DNA from: a bacterium
Lineage (GTDB): Bacteria > Vulcanimicrobiota > Xenobia > Xenobiales > JADMJV01
Direction of reading: 5' to 3'
Assembly (NCBI GenBank): GCA_030149525.1
Contig: JASBRJ010000363.1
Coordinates: forward strand, 1 to 64,000
DNA length: 64,000 nucleotides
The first letter of the stretch is position 1; each line of letters opens with the position of its first letter. A program made the position numbers and the translations under genes. Shown in pieces: positions 14,218-49,780 of this stretch. Below the pieces are notes generated by a model that saw only the letters and a program-made list of their open reading frames with translations, did no database searches and was not told the origin of the DNA.

Positions 14218-15060
14218 ATGAGCATAAAGAATTTTGCCTTAGTGACCCTTATGGGCTCAGCCCTCTTCTTGACCGGTTGTCAGAATCAAGCCGGCCAGAA
14301 CGGCGGAGGAACCACAACCGGCGGCGGCACTACCAGCACCTCCACCCCCGCAGGAGAGGTCCGTCCGATGGAAACTGCCACCCCTGAGATCTCCCCGACT
14401 TCGAGTCCGGAGGCGAGCGGCACGCCGAGTGCAACAGGGACTCCCACAGCGTCCGCCACTCCCGGCGAGGCCTCGGGAGCGGAGATTTCTCACTCTCTCA
14501 AACCGCTTCCCGGCAAAGAGAACGTGGTTCCCAAGATCACCAAAAAGACGACTATCAAAATGGAAACTACGGCCGGCGATGTGATCATAGAGATCTATCC
14601 CGAGGCCGCCCCCAATGCCGCCCAGCGATTCGAAGAATTGGTCAAGAGTGGTTTCTACGACGATACTCCGATCTCTCGAGTCGTCACCGGTTTTGTGGCC
14701 CAGTTCGGAGTCAACTGGCGCGAGCCCCATAAAGCGTTCAAAGAAAAGACCTTCAACGACGACCCCAGCTTATTTGCTCTGGAGCGAGGAACCTTGGCCT
14801 TTGCCAAGGCCGGCCCCAACACCAACTCCACCCAAGTCTTCATCAATTTCGCCGAGAACAACAATCTAGCCGATCCAAGTATGAACTTCACCACCTTCGG
14901 CAAAGTTGTCAAGGGTATGGAAGTTGTGGACAGTTTCGCCAAGGTAGGCGACCCCAGCATGGGTCTCGACCAACAGAAACTCTGGGACGACGGGTCCGCC
15001 TACTTAGAGTCGCTCGACGCCAAGCCGACTATGATCGAGAAAGCTACGGTTGTGGAATAG
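14218..15060 (+). CDS. Cyclophilin-type peptidyl-prolyl isomerase lipoprotein
   Basis: The 280-residue protein has a signal peptide and lipobox LTGC near residue 21, followed by a ~70-residue Gly/Thr/Ser/Pro linker. A cyclophilin domain spans ~115-275: MKTT-like strand KMETTAGDVIIEIYPEAAP, FEELVKSGFYDDTPISRVV, LAFAKAGPNTNSTQVFIN and FTTFGKVVKGMEVVDSFAKV. The catalytic arginine is kept (ISRVV), while the usual FHR histidine is serine. It probably folds secreted proteins at the cell surface or in the periplasm. ATG 14218 has a clear AGGAGAC upstream. Its stop (15058-15060) directly abuts the ATG of the type III PKS at 15061, so the two are co-transcribed. Confidence 0.88.
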   Translation: MSIKNFALVTLMGSALFLTGCQNQAGQNGGGTTTGGGTTSTSTPAGEVRPMETATPEISPTSSPEASGTPSATGTPTASATPGEASGAEISHSLKPLPGKENVVPKITKKTTIKMETTAGDVIIEIYPEAAPNAAQRFEELVKSGFYDDTPISRVVTGFVAQFGVNWREPHKAFKEKTFNDDPSLFALERGTLAFAKAGPNTNSTQVFINFAENNNLADPSMNFTTFGKVVKGMEVVDSFAKVGDPSMGLDQQKLWDDGSAYLESLDAKPTMIEKATVVE

Positions 15061-16137
15061 ATGGCTTACATCCTCGGAACAGAGGTTGTTTTCCCAAAGC
15101 ATCACTATAATCAGGATCAACTGCTGGACGCTCTGGTAGAGTTGTGGGGAGACGAACTCTACAACCCGGAGCGTCTTCGTAGTTTCTTTCATAATGTGCA
15201 GGTAGGTGGTCGCCACCTGGCTTTAGCCAAGGAAAAGTATCGGGAAGTCCGGGATTTTAAATCTCGAAATTTGGCCTTTCGCGAGGTGGCCCTGGAGCTT
15301 CTGGAAGAGCTCGTTCCGGCTCTGCTCACCAAGACCCAGTTCCGCTACGAAGACGTGAGTTTTCTAGTTTCCACCACGGTCACCGGCCTCTCGGTCCCCA
15401 CTCTGGAAGCTCGGCTCATGAATCGGCTTCCGATCCCCAAGCAAGCTCGACGGGTGCCGCTCTTCGGGCTCGGTTGTCTTGCCGGTGCGGCCGGAGTGGC
15501 ACGCACTCACGACCTCCTGGGGGAGACCGACGAGGTGGCCTTGATGCTTGCGGTGGAACTCTGTTCGCTCACTTTGCAGACCAAGGACGTTTCCATCGCC
15601 AACCTCGTTTCTACCGGACTCTTCGGAGACGGCTCGGCAGGCGTCATAATGGCGGGCCCTGGAAATCTCCGCGCTAAGGAGCTTGTTTCCCAGGGCAAAG
15701 GCTGTAAGGTGGTGGCTACGCGTTCCTACCTCTTTCCGGACTCGGAACAGGTCATGGGGTGGGAGTTTGACCAGGATGGGTTTCAAGTTGTTCTGAACAG
15801 CGAAGTACCGGACTACGCTCGTGGTGTTGTTTCTCAAGGTGTTCAAGAGTTTCTCGCCGATCACGAGCTTCAGGTTGCCGACATCGCTCACTGGATCGCC
15901 CACCCCGGTGGTCCCAAGGTGATTTCCGGTCTGGAAGAAGGTTTAGACATACCCGGTGCCCTTGATCGCTCCCGCGCCTCCCTCCGAGACGTGGGGAATC
16001 TCTCTTCCGTTTCGGTACTCACCATCTTGCACGAGGTTTTGGGGTCGGGTGAGCCGCAACCCGGAGACTACGGCCTGCTCATGGCCATGGGTCCCGCTTT
16101 CTGCGCTGAAGTCGTTCTGCTGAAGTGGGAGGCGTAG
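15061..16137 (+). CDS. Type III polyketide synthase (alkylpyrone/alkylresorcinol synthase-like)
   Basis: The 358-residue protein is of typical length for a chalcone-synthase-like enzyme. The catalytic triad is intact: Cys139 in GLGCLAGAAG, His281 in WIAHPGGPKVI and Asn313 in DVGNLSSVSVL. The C-terminal motif GDYGLLMAMGPAFCAEVVLLKW matches the family G-x-G-P-G loop in altered form. Such enzymes extend an acyl starter with malonyl-CoA and cyclise it to pyrones or resorcinols. The next genes are an ICMT-like methyltransferase, an ACP, a fatty acyl-AMP ligase and an FAD monooxygenase. A long fatty acyl starter and a methylated, hydroxylated phenolic or pyrone lipid product are therefore likely (inference). 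The ATG abuts the stop of the cyclophilin gene. Confidence 0.92.
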   Translation: MAYILGTEVVFPKHHYNQDQLLDALVELWGDELYNPERLRSFFHNVQVGGRHLALAKEKYREVRDFKSRNLAFREVALELLEELVPALLTKTQFRYEDVSFLVSTTVTGLSVPTLEARLMNRLPIPKQARRVPLFGLGCLAGAAGVARTHDLLGETDEVALMLAVELCSLTLQTKDVSIANLVSTGLFGDGSAGVIMAGPGNLRAKELVSQGKGCKVVATRSYLFPDSEQVMGWEFDQDGFQVVLNSEVPDYARGVVSQGVQEFLADHELQVADIAHWIAHPGGPKVISGLEEGLDIPGALDRSRASLRDVGNLSSVSVLTILHEVLGSGEPQPGDYGLLMAMGPAFCAEVVLLKWEA

Positions 16138-16140
16138 CTC

Positions 16141-16677
16141 TTGCTGGGGGTTCTGATCATTTTGGTGGGATTACAGCGGCTATGGGAGTTGCAAATAGCA
16201 GCTTCTAACGTCGCCTATCTCAAGAAACGCGGTGCTGTTGAGTACGGGAGGGAGCACTATCCCGTGATGGTGCTTCTTCACTCTCTCTGGTTAGGTTGTA
16301 TGGTGGCAGAATGGTGGAAAGGTGATCTCTTCCTCCACCAAGCGCTTGTGGGCATAGGATGGATTTTCTTTCTCACCGGTCAGGCGCTGAGATGGTGGAC
16401 CATTCGAACTCTCGGTCGCCGTTGGACCACCAGAGTGTTGATTCTGCCGGGTGAGCCTCTAGTGGCGGAAGGCCCGTTTCGTTTCCTCTCTCACCCCAAC
16501 TATTTGGGAGTGACGCTTGAGATATTCGGCTTGCCCCTCATTGGGGGGTGTTGGAAAACATCCGTCGTTTTTGGATGTTTAAATATACTGTTACTAAAAC
16601 ACCGCAAGAAGATCGAGAATGCCGCTCTTCAGGCCGGAATCAGCGGTGGAGATGGGCGGGTTTGTGAAGCAAGCTGA
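16141..16677 (+). CDS. Isoprenylcysteine carboxyl methyltransferase-like membrane methyltransferase (SrsB/BpsB type)
   Basis: The 178-residue membrane protein starts at TTG 16141, with GGGAGG about nine bases upstream. It has several hydrophobic helices and the ICMT-family SAM-binding C-terminal motif EGPFRFLSHPNYLGVTLEIFGLPLIGG. Members next to bacterial type III PKS genes (SrsB in Streptomyces, BpsB in Bacillus) methylate the alkylpyrone or alkylresorcinol product in the membrane. Its position three bases after the PKS stop supports that role. The C-terminal end overlaps the start region of the ACP gene. Confidence 0.85.
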   Translation: MLGVLIILVGLQRLWELQIAASNVAYLKKRGAVEYGREHYPVMVLLHSLWLGCMVAEWWKGDLFLHQALVGIGWIFFLTGQALRWWTIRTLGRRWTTRVLILPGEPLVAEGPFRFLSHPNYLGVTLEIFGLPLIGGCWKTSVVFGCLNILLLKHRKKIENAALQAGISGGDGRVCEAS

Positions 16678-16915
16678 AGTTTTTGAGACGGTCGTCAAAA
16701 CCTTGAAAGGCGCCTGTGGCGTCAAGAAACCTATTTCGGCAGGGAGCCGTTTGGTGGAAGACCTGGGCCTCGATTCTATGGGGATGCTGGCTCTAGCGGT
16801 CGATCTGGAAAATCGTTTCCGATTGAAGCTGGAAGAAGACCAGGCTCATCCGCCTGAAACGGTCTCCGATGTGGTTCAATTGCTACAGTCTCGTCTACAG
16901 GAGGTAGAATCGTGA
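16652..16915 (+). CDS. Acyl carrier protein
   Basis: The protein has 87 residues from ATG 16652. The frame stays open to ATG 16619, but the extra residues overlap the methyltransferase and are not ACP-like; GTG 16664 is also possible. The phosphopantetheine site is LVEDLGLDSMGMLALAVDLENRF, with Ser in the D-S-M motif. It follows the four-helix ACP plan, with helix I VFETVVKTLKGACG. Placed between the PKS methyltransferase and a fatty acyl-AMP ligase, it probably carries the activated fatty acyl starter to the type III PKS. Its stop overlaps the GTG of the ligase gene (GTGA). Confidence 0.85.
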   Translation: MGGFVKQAEVFETVVKTLKGACGVKKPISAGSRLVEDLGLDSMGMLALAVDLENRFRLKLEEDQAHPPETVSDVVQLLQSRLQEVES

Positions 16916-18555
16916 GTTTGTCTTTAAGTGAGTCTCTAAAGGAGGTTTTTCAAGCGGAGCGAGAGCTTTCATTCTACGACTTCTCAGGGCTCCATTCGTC
17001 TTTGAGTTTTTCCGAATTCGGCACTCAGGCCTCAAGCTATCAACAAGCCCTTGAGAACCTAGGTGTGCGCCCCGGCGTAGTGGTCGCCGTCATGGGCCCC
17101 ACCAGTCAAGAGTTGGTGCGAGCCTGTGCGGCTGTTTGGCTTGCCGGGGCCACCTTATGCGTTTTGCCTGTTCCCACTCGTTTGGCAAACCTAGAACAGT
17201 TCTTGATGCAGAGCATGGAGAAGCTGAGTCGCAGTGGAGCGGCTCTTCTGGTCGGCGAGGAAGGAGCGGTGTCCTGTTTCAAGGAGATGGCGGGCCTGCC
17301 GGTGATGTCTTGGGAGGAAGTAGAAACATTCCAAGGCGGAATGTCACTCCAGAACGCTCCCTTTTCCAATCATCAACCGGCGCTGGTGCAGTTTTCCAGT
17401 GGGACGACCCGTGATCCTCAACCGATTCTTCTCTCCGAGCAGGCGCTGCTCTCCAATTCTCACGCTGTTTTGGATCGATTCCCCAGTCCGGCCGGCGAGC
17501 ACAGTTGCGTGTCATGGTTGCCTCTTTATCATGATATGGGTCTTATCGGCTGTTTTCTGATGCCGCTTTTGGCGCCCGGGGATCTCACCCTGATGGGGCC
17601 TGAGGTGTTCGCCGTTCGGCCTCTGACCTGGCTAGAGGCCATTTCTCAACAAAGAGCGACCACCTCGTCGGCCCCCAATTTTGCTCTGGCCCATTGCGCC
17701 GAGCGAATCTCAGATGACGACGTGCAGACCTTGGACCTCAGTTGTTGGGAGATCGCCATGGTGGGCGCCGAAGCAGTGAGGCCCGCCACGCTGAGAAAAT
17801 TTGCCCGAAAATTCGCTCCCGCCGGGTTTTCCGAGAACGCCTTTTCTCCCGTTTACGGACTGGCCGAAGCGACTCTCGCCGTAACTTTTAGCCCTCTAGG
17901 GAAAGGTCTGAAAACCCTTGCCTATTGCGCTGAGACCCTGGCCAAGGAGAAGCGGTTTACGGAGGGAGAGAGTGAGACTCCCAGTCTCGGGCAGCCTCTC
18001 GATGGTGTCTCAGTAGAGATTCGCGAAGGTGGTGAAGTGTTGCCCGAGGGCAGGCTTGGAGAGGTTTGGGTCAAGAGTCGGTCCCTTTTGACCGGCATCT
18101 GGCAAGACGAACTGAAAACGCCTCTTCAAGAAGGCTGGCTTGACACCCAGGATGCGGGTTTTCTCAAGGACGGCGAGCTTTACTTATTTGGTCGTCGGCG
18201 CGACATTTTACTCTTGGATGGTCGAAACCACGATCCCGATACCCTGGAGGAAGCGGCTGAAAGTATTGATGTTTTGCGCCGGTGCTGCGCCTTCTGCCTG
18301 GAGTGTGAAGAACAGGATCGGGACCGACTGGTGCTGGTGTGTGAGGTTTCCAAGAGCTGGGAGGGCGATCTTATCGGGCTTCAAGATCTGGTAAAAACCA
18401 CATGTCGAAAGTCTGTCAACCTGGTTCCTGACGAGATTCTTTTTATTCCGGCTGGAGAGTTGCCTGTGACGTCCAGCGGCAAATTGCGTCGGGGCAAAGC
18501 GTGTGATATGTACGCCGGTTCGGAGTTTCTCGACCTCTCCTTGGCCACTGCCTGA
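16912..18555 (+). CDS. Fatty acyl-AMP ligase (FAAL-type adenylate-forming enzyme)
   Basis: The 547-residue protein starts at GTG 16912, with AGGAGG eight bases upstream. Adenylation core motifs are present: VQFSSGTTRDPQPILLS (A3 P-loop), SWLPLYHDMGLIGCFLMPL (a FAAL-type A4 segment), FSPVYGLAEATLAV (A5), DTQDAGFLKDGELYLFGRRRDILLLDGRN (A7/A8) and TSSGKLRRGKACD (A10 lysine). The W-L-P-x-Y-H-D-M-G-L motif is characteristic of FAALs, which make acyl-AMP and load it on an ACP instead of CoA. The adjacent ACP fits. It probably supplies the long-chain starter for the type III PKS in this operon. Confidence 0.88.
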   Translation: MSLSLSESLKEVFQAERELSFYDFSGLHSSLSFSEFGTQASSYQQALENLGVRPGVVVAVMGPTSQELVRACAAVWLAGATLCVLPVPTRLANLEQFLMQSMEKLSRSGAALLVGEEGAVSCFKEMAGLPVMSWEEVETFQGGMSLQNAPFSNHQPALVQFSSGTTRDPQPILLSEQALLSNSHAVLDRFPSPAGEHSCVSWLPLYHDMGLIGCFLMPLLAPGDLTLMGPEVFAVRPLTWLEAISQQRATTSSAPNFALAHCAERISDDDVQTLDLSCWEIAMVGAEAVRPATLRKFARKFAPAGFSENAFSPVYGLAEATLAVTFSPLGKGLKTLAYCAETLAKEKRFTEGESETPSLGQPLDGVSVEIREGGEVLPEGRLGEVWVKSRSLLTGIWQDELKTPLQEGWLDTQDAGFLKDGELYLFGRRRDILLLDGRNHDPDTLEEAAESIDVLRRCCAFCLECEEQDRDRLVLVCEVSKSWEGDLIGLQDLVKTTCRKSVNLVPDEILFIPAGELPVTSSGKLRRGKACDMYAGSEFLDLSLATA

Positions 18556-18560
18556 GCCTT

Positions 18561-19748
18561 ATGAATCGGCAGCCCGTCATCGTTGTGGGGGGAGGGCCGG
18601 TGGGAAGTGTGCTCACTCTCCTGCTGAGTCGACGCGGCATACCCGTTTACCTCATCGATGCAGGGGCCTCGTTTTCCAAGGTCTGCGGAGAAGGTCTGTT
18701 GCCCGCCGGTTGGGGCATTCTGGAAGACCTCGGTGTGGCCCGGGAGCTTGTGGAACGTTCCCCTATCCAAGGTCTGAAGTATCGACTGCAATCCGGTGGA
18801 GATTGGCAAGAGATGTTTGCCGCCCTTCAGGGTCGTGCTTTCGGAGTGGAGAGAGCGCATCTGTTGGGGGGTCTCAGGAAGGCCGTGGCGCGGGAGTCGC
18901 ATGTCACCGTTTTTGAGAATACCCGTTTTCGAGACTTCTCCTTTACACCCGACGGGGTGGAGGTCACCCTCGGAGAGGGGGGTCGAGAAGTTCTTTCCGG
19001 TTCACTGCTTGTCGGGGCCGACGGCCTTCATTCCACGGTTCGTCGAAAATGCCACCTGCAGTCGGAGCTGAAGACAACCTATCGCCGTTGGGGGACTCGC
19101 TGTTACTTTCGGTCTCAGGAACGTCGAAACGCTGTGGAGGTCACTCTTGGGCGAGGAGTAGAGAGCTACCTCACACCTCTGGGAGGCGATCTCTACGGTC
19201 TGGCCTTTCTCTGGTCTCCCCATCTGTTAGGTCGACCGCTTCCAGGTGAGGGGTCGTTAGTGGAGCGTCTTCTTGGCTTCTTCCCCGAGGGGCTTCAAGA
19301 GCGCTTGCCCGTTGCCGGCACTCCCTTCTTCGGAGGGGAGAAGGCGATAGGGCCTTTGCAGCAGTTGGTCACGCAGCCGCTCCATTCCAGTGAACGCGTC
19401 GCCCTGGTGGGGGATGCCGCAGGGTATTTTGATGCACTGACCGGTGAGGGCTTATGTCTCGGGTTTCGGCAAGCGGCCGCCCTGGCTGATTGCATCGAGA
19501 GAGGCAACTTGAAGAGCTATCCCCGACGGCACCGAGAGATCAAGAGGCGCCACCAAAGAGTCGTTTCCGGTCTCTTGTGGCTGATCCATCAGCCCGCCCT
19601 ACGGGAGCGAGTCTTTCGGGCTTTGGCCACTTCCCCCGACCAATTTCAAAGAGTGATCGGATTCGCCGTGGAGGAGGCACCCTGGTGGAGTCTCTGGTCG
19701 GCTCAAACCGTTTCTTTCTTTCTCAAGGTTCTTACAGCTTATCGTTAA
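18561..19748 (+). CDS. FAD-dependent monooxygenase/hydroxylase (SrsC-like or geranylgeranyl-reductase-like)
   Basis: The 395-residue protein begins PVIVVGGGPVGSVLTLLLSRRG, the dinucleotide-binding motif. It also has GADGLHSTVRRK (the conserved G-A-D-G-x-x-S-x-x-R segment) and VALVGDAAGYFDALTGEGLCLGFRQA (the G-D motif that binds the FAD ribityl chain). This is the group A flavin monooxygenase/reductase fold. In srs-type phenolic-lipid clusters a flavoprotein of this kind hydroxylates the alkylresorcinol to a hydroquinone or quinone, so a ring hydroxylase is the likely role. A geranylgeranyl reductase-like activity is the alternative. It lies five bases after the ligase gene. Confidence 0.82.
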   Translation: MNRQPVIVVGGGPVGSVLTLLLSRRGIPVYLIDAGASFSKVCGEGLLPAGWGILEDLGVARELVERSPIQGLKYRLQSGGDWQEMFAALQGRAFGVERAHLLGGLRKAVARESHVTVFENTRFRDFSFTPDGVEVTLGEGGREVLSGSLLVGADGLHSTVRRKCHLQSELKTTYRRWGTRCYFRSQERRNAVEVTLGRGVESYLTPLGGDLYGLAFLWSPHLLGRPLPGEGSLVERLLGFFPEGLQERLPVAGTPFFGGEKAIGPLQQLVTQPLHSSERVALVGDAAGYFDALTGEGLCLGFRQAAALADCIERGNLKSYPRRHREIKRRHQRVVSGLLWLIHQPALRERVFRALATSPDQFQRVIGFAVEEAPWWSLWSAQTVSFFLKVLTAYR

Positions 19749-19800: not shown

Positions 19801-20715
19801 ATGAACTGGAACATACTCAAGATCCTGGAAGGATACATCGGCAGAGGCCGGGCTCAGGAAACAACGACCACCGAGACCGAAGTGGTAGACAAACTGGGAA
19901 ACGCTCTGGGTCGTCTCCGTGAACTGACTCACAAACTTGAGCAGGAGCAGGAGACCGCGGCCGAGAGACGAGCGCAAGAGCTCAAGGATGAGCGGCTTAA
20001 AAAGGAAATTGAGAGAGCTCACTCTCAGATGCTACAAGCTATCCTGACCTGTCATAAGGACTTGGGTACCGGACTTGATGAAAGTCGTCTCAAAGAACTC
20101 CATGATCTGTACGAAGAGATTCCTCAGCCGGAAGAGCACGGGCGACCCACCAGTTTACAAAACATGATTAAGTACGCCACGGCAAAACTGTTCCACGAAG
20201 AGTTGGGTCCTCCCAGTTGGCAGAAGCTCCTGACGGCTCTGGCCGACAAGGGTATAGAGTGGCCTGACCCGGAAGGTCTTTCCCCTAACGCCACTGCGGA
20301 AGAGAAAGAGAAAGCCAGAGCCCACTATCAGGCCAGAAACGAATCGGCTTTCCTGGAGAGACCACTGCGACATAGTGGAGACCTCATCATCGGTGTGGTG
20401 AAAATTTGGAGAGCTTCCTATCCCACTCCGTCCTCCGGTCTCTATCGGGAAACGGTCTACGAGGCGGTGGCCTCAGCCTTTCGAGCCGAGTCTCTCGAGC
20501 GCGCCCTGAAGCTTGCTTCTGATGTTCCCGAAGAATTGGTCAAGAAGATAGATTCTTTGCTTACGGAGGAGTTGGGCGTGGTCTACCGGGCCCTCAATAA
20601 AGACGATCTGACTCTAGACGAGGCTCATCAGGCCAACCAAGTCACCTCCAAAGCTTATTGCTGCATCATCCCCCGAATGTTGTGGAATCATGTGAAGAGT
20701 CAAGCCCTTGCCTAG
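19801..20715 (+). CDS. Unrecognised soluble helical protein
   Basis: The 304-residue protein has no signal peptide or membrane helix. Residues ~28-80 form a charged coiled coil (LRELTHKLEQEQETAAERRAQELKDERLKKEI). A mostly helical domain follows with PSWQKLLTALADKGIEWPDPEG, a charged linker and RPLRHSGDLIIGVVKIWRASYPTP. I do not recognise the family. There is no clear Shine-Dalgarno site, and the gap from the FAD monooxygenase is 52 bases. The stop overlaps the TTG of the NmrA-like gene. It could be a late member of the PKS operon or start an independent pair. The reading frame has normal codon bias, so the gene is real. Confidence 0.6.
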   Translation: MNWNILKILEGYIGRGRAQETTTTETEVVDKLGNALGRLRELTHKLEQEQETAAERRAQELKDERLKKEIERAHSQMLQAILTCHKDLGTGLDESRLKELHDLYEEIPQPEEHGRPTSLQNMIKYATAKLFHEELGPPSWQKLLTALADKGIEWPDPEGLSPNATAEEKEKARAHYQARNESAFLERPLRHSGDLIIGVVKIWRASYPTPSSGLYRETVYEAVASAFRAESLERALKLASDVPEELVKKIDSLLTEELGVVYRALNKDDLTLDEAHQANQVTSKAYCCIIPRMLWNHVKSQALA

Positions 20716-21595
20716 CTATTCAGATTCATCGAACATAGTCGTCACCGGGGCGACCGGCATGTTTGGTGGTGCCGTCTTAGGCGCGCTTCTTAGCCAGGGC
20801 CTTCATCCACGTGCCGTGACCCGAAGCGAGTCAAGGGCCCAGGTTTTGGCCCGCCAGGGAGCAGTTCCCGTGGTTGCGGATTTAGCTTGCCCTGAGAGTC
20901 TTGGAGAGTCGTTAAAGGGAGCCGAAAAGGCCTTTTTGGTTTCACCGATGCAACCCGATCTCAATCTGTTGGAAAAGAACTTCATCGATCACTGTAAACG
21001 GGCAGGGGTCCGACACATCGTTAAGCTTTTCGGTTGTGTAGATCACGGCGACGACCCTCTGGTCCGTCTGCATCTCGACGCTATCGACCATCTAAAAAAG
21101 TCTGGAATGGAGTGGACGCTGGTGTCGCCCAACACCGTCATGGACTCCAATTTCTTTCCCCACGCGTCGACCATCAAAGAAGAAAGCTGCTTCTACGCCT
21201 CTGCCGGCCAGGGGCGATGCGGTTTCGTATCCTGTCTTGACTGCGCCGAGGTTGCAGCCCATGTGCTCACCACCGACGGTCATCACGGAAAAGACTATCA
21301 GGTAACCGGTCCGGAGGCGGCCTCATTGGCCGATGCTGCCCAGGCCCTCTCCGAAGTGCTCGGGCACACCATCGAGTATGTAGATCTGCCTGAAAAAGAG
21401 ATGTTGGAGATTCTGTGCTCAGCTGGAATGACTCCTGAAGAGGCGGAAATGCAGGTGCTGTGTCACTATCGTCTTTTCAAAGAGGGGAAAGCAACCCTGG
21501 TCACTGATGTCGTGAGAGAATTACTCGGTCGCCCAGCCACTTCCCTCAAGGAGTTCTTTGAAAGGAATCGAGACGCTTTCGAGTCCGGCTCTTAG
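20708..21595 (+). CDS. NmrA-like NAD(P)-binding protein (atypical SDR)
   Basis: The 295-residue protein starts at TTG 20708, overlapping the upstream stop by eight bases. The Rossmann motif VVTGATGMFGGAVLGALLSQG is followed by PRAVTRSESRAQVLARQG, AFLVSPMQPDL and SGMEWTLVSPNTVMDSNF, which is the plan of NmrA/azoreductase-like atypical SDRs that bind NADP. The classical Tyr-x-x-x-Lys active site is absent, as in that subfamily. It may be a redox sensor or a quinone/flavin-type reductase. A role in modifying the phenolic lipid made upstream is possible but unproven. Its TAG (21593-21595) overlaps the stop of the convergent coiled-coil gene. Confidence 0.8.
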   Translation: MPSYSDSSNIVVTGATGMFGGAVLGALLSQGLHPRAVTRSESRAQVLARQGAVPVVADLACPESLGESLKGAEKAFLVSPMQPDLNLLEKNFIDHCKRAGVRHIVKLFGCVDHGDDPLVRLHLDAIDHLKKSGMEWTLVSPNTVMDSNFFPHASTIKEESCFYASAGQGRCGFVSCLDCAEVAAHVLTTDGHHGKDYQVTGPEAASLADAAQALSEVLGHTIEYVDLPEKEMLEILCSAGMTPEEAEMQVLCHYRLFKEGKATLVTDVVRELLGRPATSLKEFFERNRDAFESGS

Positions 21596-49540: not shown

Positions 49541-49612
49541 GCGGATGTAGCTCAGTGGTAGAGCATCGGCTTCCCAAGCCGGGTGTCGCGAGTTCGACTC
49601 TCGTCTTCCGCT
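49541..49612 (+). tRNA. tRNA-Gly (anticodon CCC)
   Basis: It has a cloverleaf with D arm GCTC/GAGC, anticodon loop TTCCCAA (anticodon CCC, reads GGG) and T arm with loop TTCGACT. The acceptor stem GCGGATG pairs with CTTCCGC except for a U.U mismatch at positions 6:67. The discriminator is T, as usual for glycine. The 3' CCA is not encoded. It is the first of three tRNA genes. Confidence 0.93.
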
Positions 49613-49624
49613 CTTAACGCTTAT

Positions 49625-49698
49625 GGTGACGTGGCCGAGTGGTTAGGCAAAGGTCTGCAAAACCTTGTACAGCAGTTCGATTCTGCTCGTCACCTCCA
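49625..49698 (+). tRNA. tRNA-Cys (anticodon GCA)
   Basis: It has an acceptor stem GGTGACG/CGTCACC, anticodon loop CTGCAAA (anticodon GCA), U73 discriminator and encoded CCA at 49696-49698. It lies 12 bases after the tRNA-Gly gene. Confidence 0.95.
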
Positions 49699-49703
49699 TA
49701 GAT

Positions 49704-49780
49704 GGACGCATAGCTCAGTTGGTTAGAGCGCTACGTTGACATCGTAGAGGTCAGCGGTTCAAATCCGTTTGCGTCCACCA
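49704..49780 (+). tRNA. tRNA-Val (anticodon GAC)
   Basis: It has an acceptor stem GGACGCA/TGCGTCC, anticodon stem-loop CTACG-TTGACAT-CGTAG (anticodon GAC), T arm with GGTTCAAATCC, and encoded CCA at 49778-49780. It ends the Gly-Cys-Val cluster, four bases before the terminator. Confidence 0.95.

What the first reader, a model, noticed from the sequence alone, without database searches (positions are those of the whole stretch)
15061..19748. Type III PKS cluster with its own FAAL and ACP
The five-gene operon (PKS III, ICMT-like methyltransferase, ACP, fatty acyl-AMP ligase, FAD monooxygenase) is an srs-like phenolic-lipid cluster with an added FAAL/ACP starter-loading pair. Known srs and bps systems take acyl-CoA or acyl-ACP from primary metabolism, while ars systems of Azotobacter use dedicated fatty acid synthases. 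Here the starter would be a free fatty acid activated inside the cluster. A methylated alkylquinone, resorcinol or pyrone lipid is predicted.
Basis: partly seen in the sequence, partly recalled or inferred. Interest (0 to 1): 0.76.

Follow-up and report, generated by a model that had tools for sequence, protein, structure and literature searches.

The report
Ordinary phenolic-lipid cluster with starter-loading pair
An uncultured bacterium carries a five-gene set that probably turns a free fatty acid into a methylated phenolic or quinone lipid; the gene set is real, but the same arrangement occurs in myxobacteria and other groups and its key idea was published in 2011, so it is an ordinary new example.

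Summary
Window 15061-19748 (+) holds a tight operon: type III PKS, ICMT-like methyltransferase, acyl carrier protein, fatty acyl-AMP ligase (FAAL), FAD monooxygenase. Profiles confirm each identity, and key residues are present: PKS Cys139-His281-Asn313 and Trp234; ACP Ser53; the FAAL residues that reject CoA. The broad interpretation (srs-like phenolic-lipid pathway with cluster-encoded starter loading) is well supported, but the claim that this loading is new is not. A FAAL acting with a type III PKS that makes alkylresorcylic acid was reported from Myxococcus xanthus in 2011 (FtpA; Hayashi et al., known here through citing papers), and a FAAL-ACP pair starts the cylindrocyclophane pathway, which ends in type III PKS CylI. 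I found the same five genes in the same order in Corallococcus, Archangium, Pyxidicoccus, Citreicoccus, other Myxococcota and Acidobacteriota, and the first four in 5 of 5 other genomes of the window's family (the fifth in 3). Of 98 related PKS loci, 42 have the FAAL beside the PKS. Actinobacteria have the srsABC-like form without ACP and FAAL. Verdict: new member of a known kind (ftp-type), low interest. The product (resorcinol/quinone rather than pyrone) is inferred.

The parts
15061..16137 (+). type III polyketide synthase, 358 aa; catalytic Cys139, His281, Asn313; Trp234 aligns with Trp230 of M. tuberculosis PKS11
   Evidence: Pfam; best PDB match PKS11, E 5e-78; profile alignment; triad invariant in 99 of 99 homologues, Trp in 95 of 99
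16141..16677 (+). ICMT-family membrane methyltransferase, 178 aa (SrsB/BpsB-like)
   Evidence: Pfam ICMT E 9e-25; adjacent to the PKS in nearly all homologous loci
16619..16915 (+). free-standing acyl carrier protein, up to 98 aa, phosphopantetheine Ser53 in GLDSM; start codon uncertain
   Evidence: Pfam PP-binding E 8e-6; Ser conserved in 41 of 41 cluster ACPs
16912..18555 (+). fatty acyl-AMP ligase (FAAL), 547 aa; Trp202, Met209, Phe257 and the FAAL-specific helix region (230-236) correspond to the elements that block the CoA pocket; Thr64 and Pro88 of the alternative pantetheine pocket are kept
   Evidence: NCBIfam fatty acyl-AMP ligase E 9e-112, below that model's own cut-off; PDB hits above 100 bits are FAALs or adenylation domains, best CoA ligase 59 bits; alignment to EcFAAL 3pbk; conservation
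18561..19748 (+). FAD-dependent monooxygenase of the UbiH/PHBH superfamily, 395 aa (position of SrsC)
   Evidence: Pfam FAD_binding_3 E 2e-19, NCBIfam UbiH/UbiF family
14218..15060 (+). cyclophilin-type peptidyl-prolyl isomerase lipoprotein; its stop codon touches the PKS start codon, so probably co-transcribed; no obvious biosynthetic role
   Evidence: Pfam Pro_isomerase E 6e-30; sequence at the junction; PPIase genes precede the PKS in all 5 family relatives

Best explanation
An ftp-type (Myxococcus FtpA-like) phenolic-lipid cluster. The FAAL adenylates a free medium- or long-chain fatty acid and loads it on the dedicated ACP. The type III PKS takes the acyl chain from the acyl-ACP, extends it with malonyl-CoA (possibly some methylmalonyl-CoA) and closes an aromatic ring, giving an alkylresorcylic acid or alkylresorcinol. 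The ICMT-like enzyme methylates it (in srs, a decarboxylative O-methylation) and the flavin monooxygenase hydroxylates it, giving a methoxy-alkylquinol or quinone. Shown here: gene identities, catalytic and acceptor-selectivity residues, operon structure, conservation of the five-gene order. Inferred: all reactions, starter chain and end product.
For: Identities and residues. Same order in 5 of 5 family relatives for PKS-ICMT-ACP-FAAL, 3 of them with the FMO, and in Corallococcus, Archangium, Pyxidicoccus, Citreicoccus and Acidobacteriota. ACP was detected by tblastn in 39 of the 42 loci with an adjacent FAAL, and one more by eye. Trp234 matches the Trp held to favour resorcinol over pyrone. 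Known: FAAL involvement in alkylresorcylic acid synthesis by M. xanthus FtpA, and oxidation to alkylquinones; SrsB and SrsC methylate and hydroxylate. One PF01648-family pantetheinyl transferase gene is in the genome.
Against: The Hayashi 2011 paper itself is not held, and the M. xanthus locus was not among those fetched, so FtpA could not be compared letter for letter. The best solved relative, PKS11, is named as an alpha-pyrone synthase, so pyrones remain possible. The window's PKS is only 55% identical to its nearest relatives and has a long branch. No expression or chemistry.
Confidence: 0.75

Rival explanations
1. The FAAL/ACP pair loads the PKS, but the product is an alkyl-alpha-pyrone O-methylated by the ICMT-like enzyme (bps-like), the monooxygenase acting on the side chain or another substrate.
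For: Closest solved PKS is the PKS11 alpha-pyrone synthase; [quoted passage not shown] 2019; the more distant relatives of the phylum have only PKS-ICMT, as in bps.
Against: Trp234 is at the position where Trp goes with resorcinol formation; the monooxygenase completes the srsABC set.
Confidence: 0.18
2. The PKS uses acyl-CoA starters from primary metabolism and the FAAL/ACP pair serves some other lipid; their adjacency is accidental.
For: srs-type relatives in Actinobacteria work without a FAAL; type III PKSs generally take CoA starters.
Against: ACP and FAAL are kept between the ICMT and FMO genes across several phyla, and FAAL presence is strongly clustered on the PKS tree (7-8 changes against about 32 in shuffles); FAAL involvement was reported for the M. 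xanthus system.
Confidence: 0.05

Closest known systems
Myxococcus xanthus FtpA type III PKS with FAAL (Hayashi et al. 2011, doi 10.1002/cbic.201100344)
   Same: Type III PKS plus FAAL (and, from memory, an ACP); alkylresorcylic acid and then alkylquinone; the same five-gene order is present in its family relatives Corallococcus, Pyxidicoccus and Citreicoccus.
   Different: Different phylum and about 47% PKS identity to those relatives; a cyclophilin gene is joined upstream.
srsABC of Streptomyces griseus
   Same: PKS, ICMT-like methyltransferase and FAD monooxygenase in that order; Streptomyces loci L112, L117, L118 and L132 match all three.
   Different: No ACP and no FAAL; acyl-CoA starters.
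Cylindrocyclophane pathway (CylA FAAL, CylB ACP, CylI type III PKS)
   Same: A FAAL loads a fatty acid on a free ACP and a type III PKS finishes a resorcinol.
   Different: Type I PKSs and a halogenase lie between; no ICMT-FMO pair known to me there.
bpsAB of Bacillus subtilis and PKS-ICMT pairs of the window's phylum
   Same: Type III PKS next to an ICMT-like methyltransferase (for the phylum; bps from general knowledge).
   Different: No ACP, FAAL or monooxygenase beside the PKS; in the phylum pairs the PKS is only 30-38% identical.
ars of Azotobacter vinelandii
   Same: Type III PKSs that accept starters from an acyl-ACP.
   Different: Starter made by a dedicated type I fatty acid synthase, not by a FAAL.

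Membership tests
ftp-type (FAAL-loaded type III PKS) cluster | type III PKS with intact Cys-His-Asn triad of the long-chain (SrsA/PKS10/PKS11/FtpA) group | tested here: met
   (FtpA sequence itself not compared)
ftp-type (FAAL-loaded type III PKS) cluster | adjacent true FAAL (not a CoA ligase) | tested here: met
ftp-type (FAAL-loaded type III PKS) cluster | adjacent free-standing ACP with phosphopantetheine Ser | tested here: met
ftp-type (FAAL-loaded type III PKS) cluster | same gene order as in Myxococcaceae | tested here: met
   L068, L069, L074, L077, L093, L095, L125; M. xanthus itself not fetched
ftp-type (FAAL-loaded type III PKS) cluster | acyl-ACP made by the FAAL is the PKS starter | not testable with these tools
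   needs purified proteins
srs operon | contiguous PKS-ICMT-FAD monooxygenase, no loading genes | tested here: not met
   three enzymes present in order, but ACP and FAAL lie between
ars operon | dedicated type I FAS beside the PKS | tested here: not met
   no FAS gene in the translated neighbourhood

The most novel reading that the evidence does not exclude
In this little-known bacterial family the FAAL/ACP-loaded PKS makes a new phenolic or quinone lipid with an unusual starter or a respiratory role, possibly helped by the nitroreductase-like gene that relatives carry in the same operon.
Probability: 0.08. Interest if true: 0.45.

Novelty: new member of a known kind. Interest (0 to 1): 0.18.

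Why it matters
It extends FAAL-loaded type III PKS phenolic-lipid clusters to another, uncultured lineage and indicates that the five-gene form is widespread beyond myxobacteria. It does not introduce a new principle.

Tried and rejected
ICMT-like protein against the PDB: no match. Viral-contig scan with the FAAL: only distant ligases at 26-29% identity; their neighbourhoods were not examined. Hayashi 2011 and the SrsB paper are not held. A search for Eremiobacterota with type III PKS found no relevant paper. Promoter scan found nothing and the terminator count was near chance. The downstream genes 19801-20715 and 20708-21595 were considered as part of the cluster and rejected: not found in family relatives. 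AlphaFold was not used because sequence matches were already decisive.

Full report
Observation. The five genes lie at 15061-19748 on the + strand exactly as described, nearly end to end. Pfam and NCBIfam confirm type III PKS, ICMT-family methyltransferase, carrier protein, fatty acyl-AMP ligase and FAD monooxygenase. It is the only clear type III PKS in the genome.

Function of the parts. The PKS is closest among solved structures to PKS11 of M. tuberculosis (E 5e-78), and Cys139, His281 and Asn313 are invariant in 99 homologues. Trp234 aligns with Trp230 of PKS11. PMC5916927 says that the Trp at position 230 of M. marinum MMAR_2474, essential in Azotobacter ArsB for resorcinols, is conserved in FtpA, SrsA, PKS10 and PKS11; ArsB W281G switches the product to pyrone (PMC6274091). 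The ligase matches FAALs far better than CoA ligases. It keeps the bulky residues that, according to PMC8460268, close the CoA pocket (EcFAAL W224, M231, F279 = W202, M209, F257) and Thr83 and Pro107 of the alternative pocket (T64, P88). The carrier protein has the phosphopantetheine serine, and a PF01648-family transferase gene is in the genome.

Relatives. In the 5 other genomes of the same family, PKS-ICMT-ACP-FAAL are adjacent and preceded by PPIase genes; the monooxygenase follows in 3, one contig ends, one lacks it in the fetched stretch. More distant members of the phylum have only PKS-ICMT or a divergent PKS. In GTDB genomes the five-gene order is found in Corallococcus, Archangium, Pyxidicoccus, Citreicoccus, other Myxococcota, Acidobacteriota and unplaced Proteobacteria; Streptomyces and Mycobacterium have PKS-ICMT-FMO. 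Of 98 PKS loci, 42 have an adjacent FAAL. Most of these loci were picked as the best matches to a profile from this family, so the fraction is not a frequency in nature. On the PKS tree FAAL presence is clustered (7-8 changes against about 32 in shuffles); the window's PKS falls in a starred set of 10 rows, 6 with FAAL and 4 without, from several phyla, with long branches, so its exact place is unsure.

Known work. Hayashi et al. [quoted passage not shown] PMC10896814 states that M. xanthus oxidises the products of FtpA to alkylquinones, and PMC8460268 lists alkylresorcylic acid among products served by FAALs. PMC8460268 also showed a FAAL of M. xanthus charging its ACP; whether that pair is the one beside FtpA is not stated in what I read. 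The cylindrocyclophane pathway is a second FAAL/ACP/type III PKS case (PMC11837247, PMC8086630). SrsB and SrsC methylate and hydroxylate (PMC6669644).

Conclusion. The gene set is real and the loading idea sensible, but it is a known arrangement: a new member, in an uncultured lineage, of the ftp-type clusters.

Noticed in passing
L059:10178-10753, L031:12010-12708, L030:6570-7316, L065:12108-12788: Family relatives carry an extra nitroreductase-like gene between FAAL and monooxygenase (in L065 further downstream); the window lacks it. Judged by eye from the sequence, no profile search run.
   Followed up: partly
window 14218-15060: Cyclophilin lipoprotein gene whose stop codon abuts the PKS start codon; relatives have two PPIase genes in this place.
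   Followed up: partly
window 16619-16677: ACP ORF overlaps the end of the methyltransferase gene by 59 bases if the first ATG is used; an internal ATG at 16652 is likelier.
   Followed up: no
L060:7001-9665: A MAG named Euryarchaeota carries PKS-ICMT-FMO; either transfer into an archaeon or a contaminating contig.
   Followed up: no
window 19801-21595: An unknown protein (no Pfam or NCBIfam match) followed by an NmrA-like reductase; not conserved with the cluster in relatives.
   Followed up: partly
window 49541-49780: Three tRNA genes in a row (Gly-CCC, Cys-GCA, Val-GAC).
   Followed up: no
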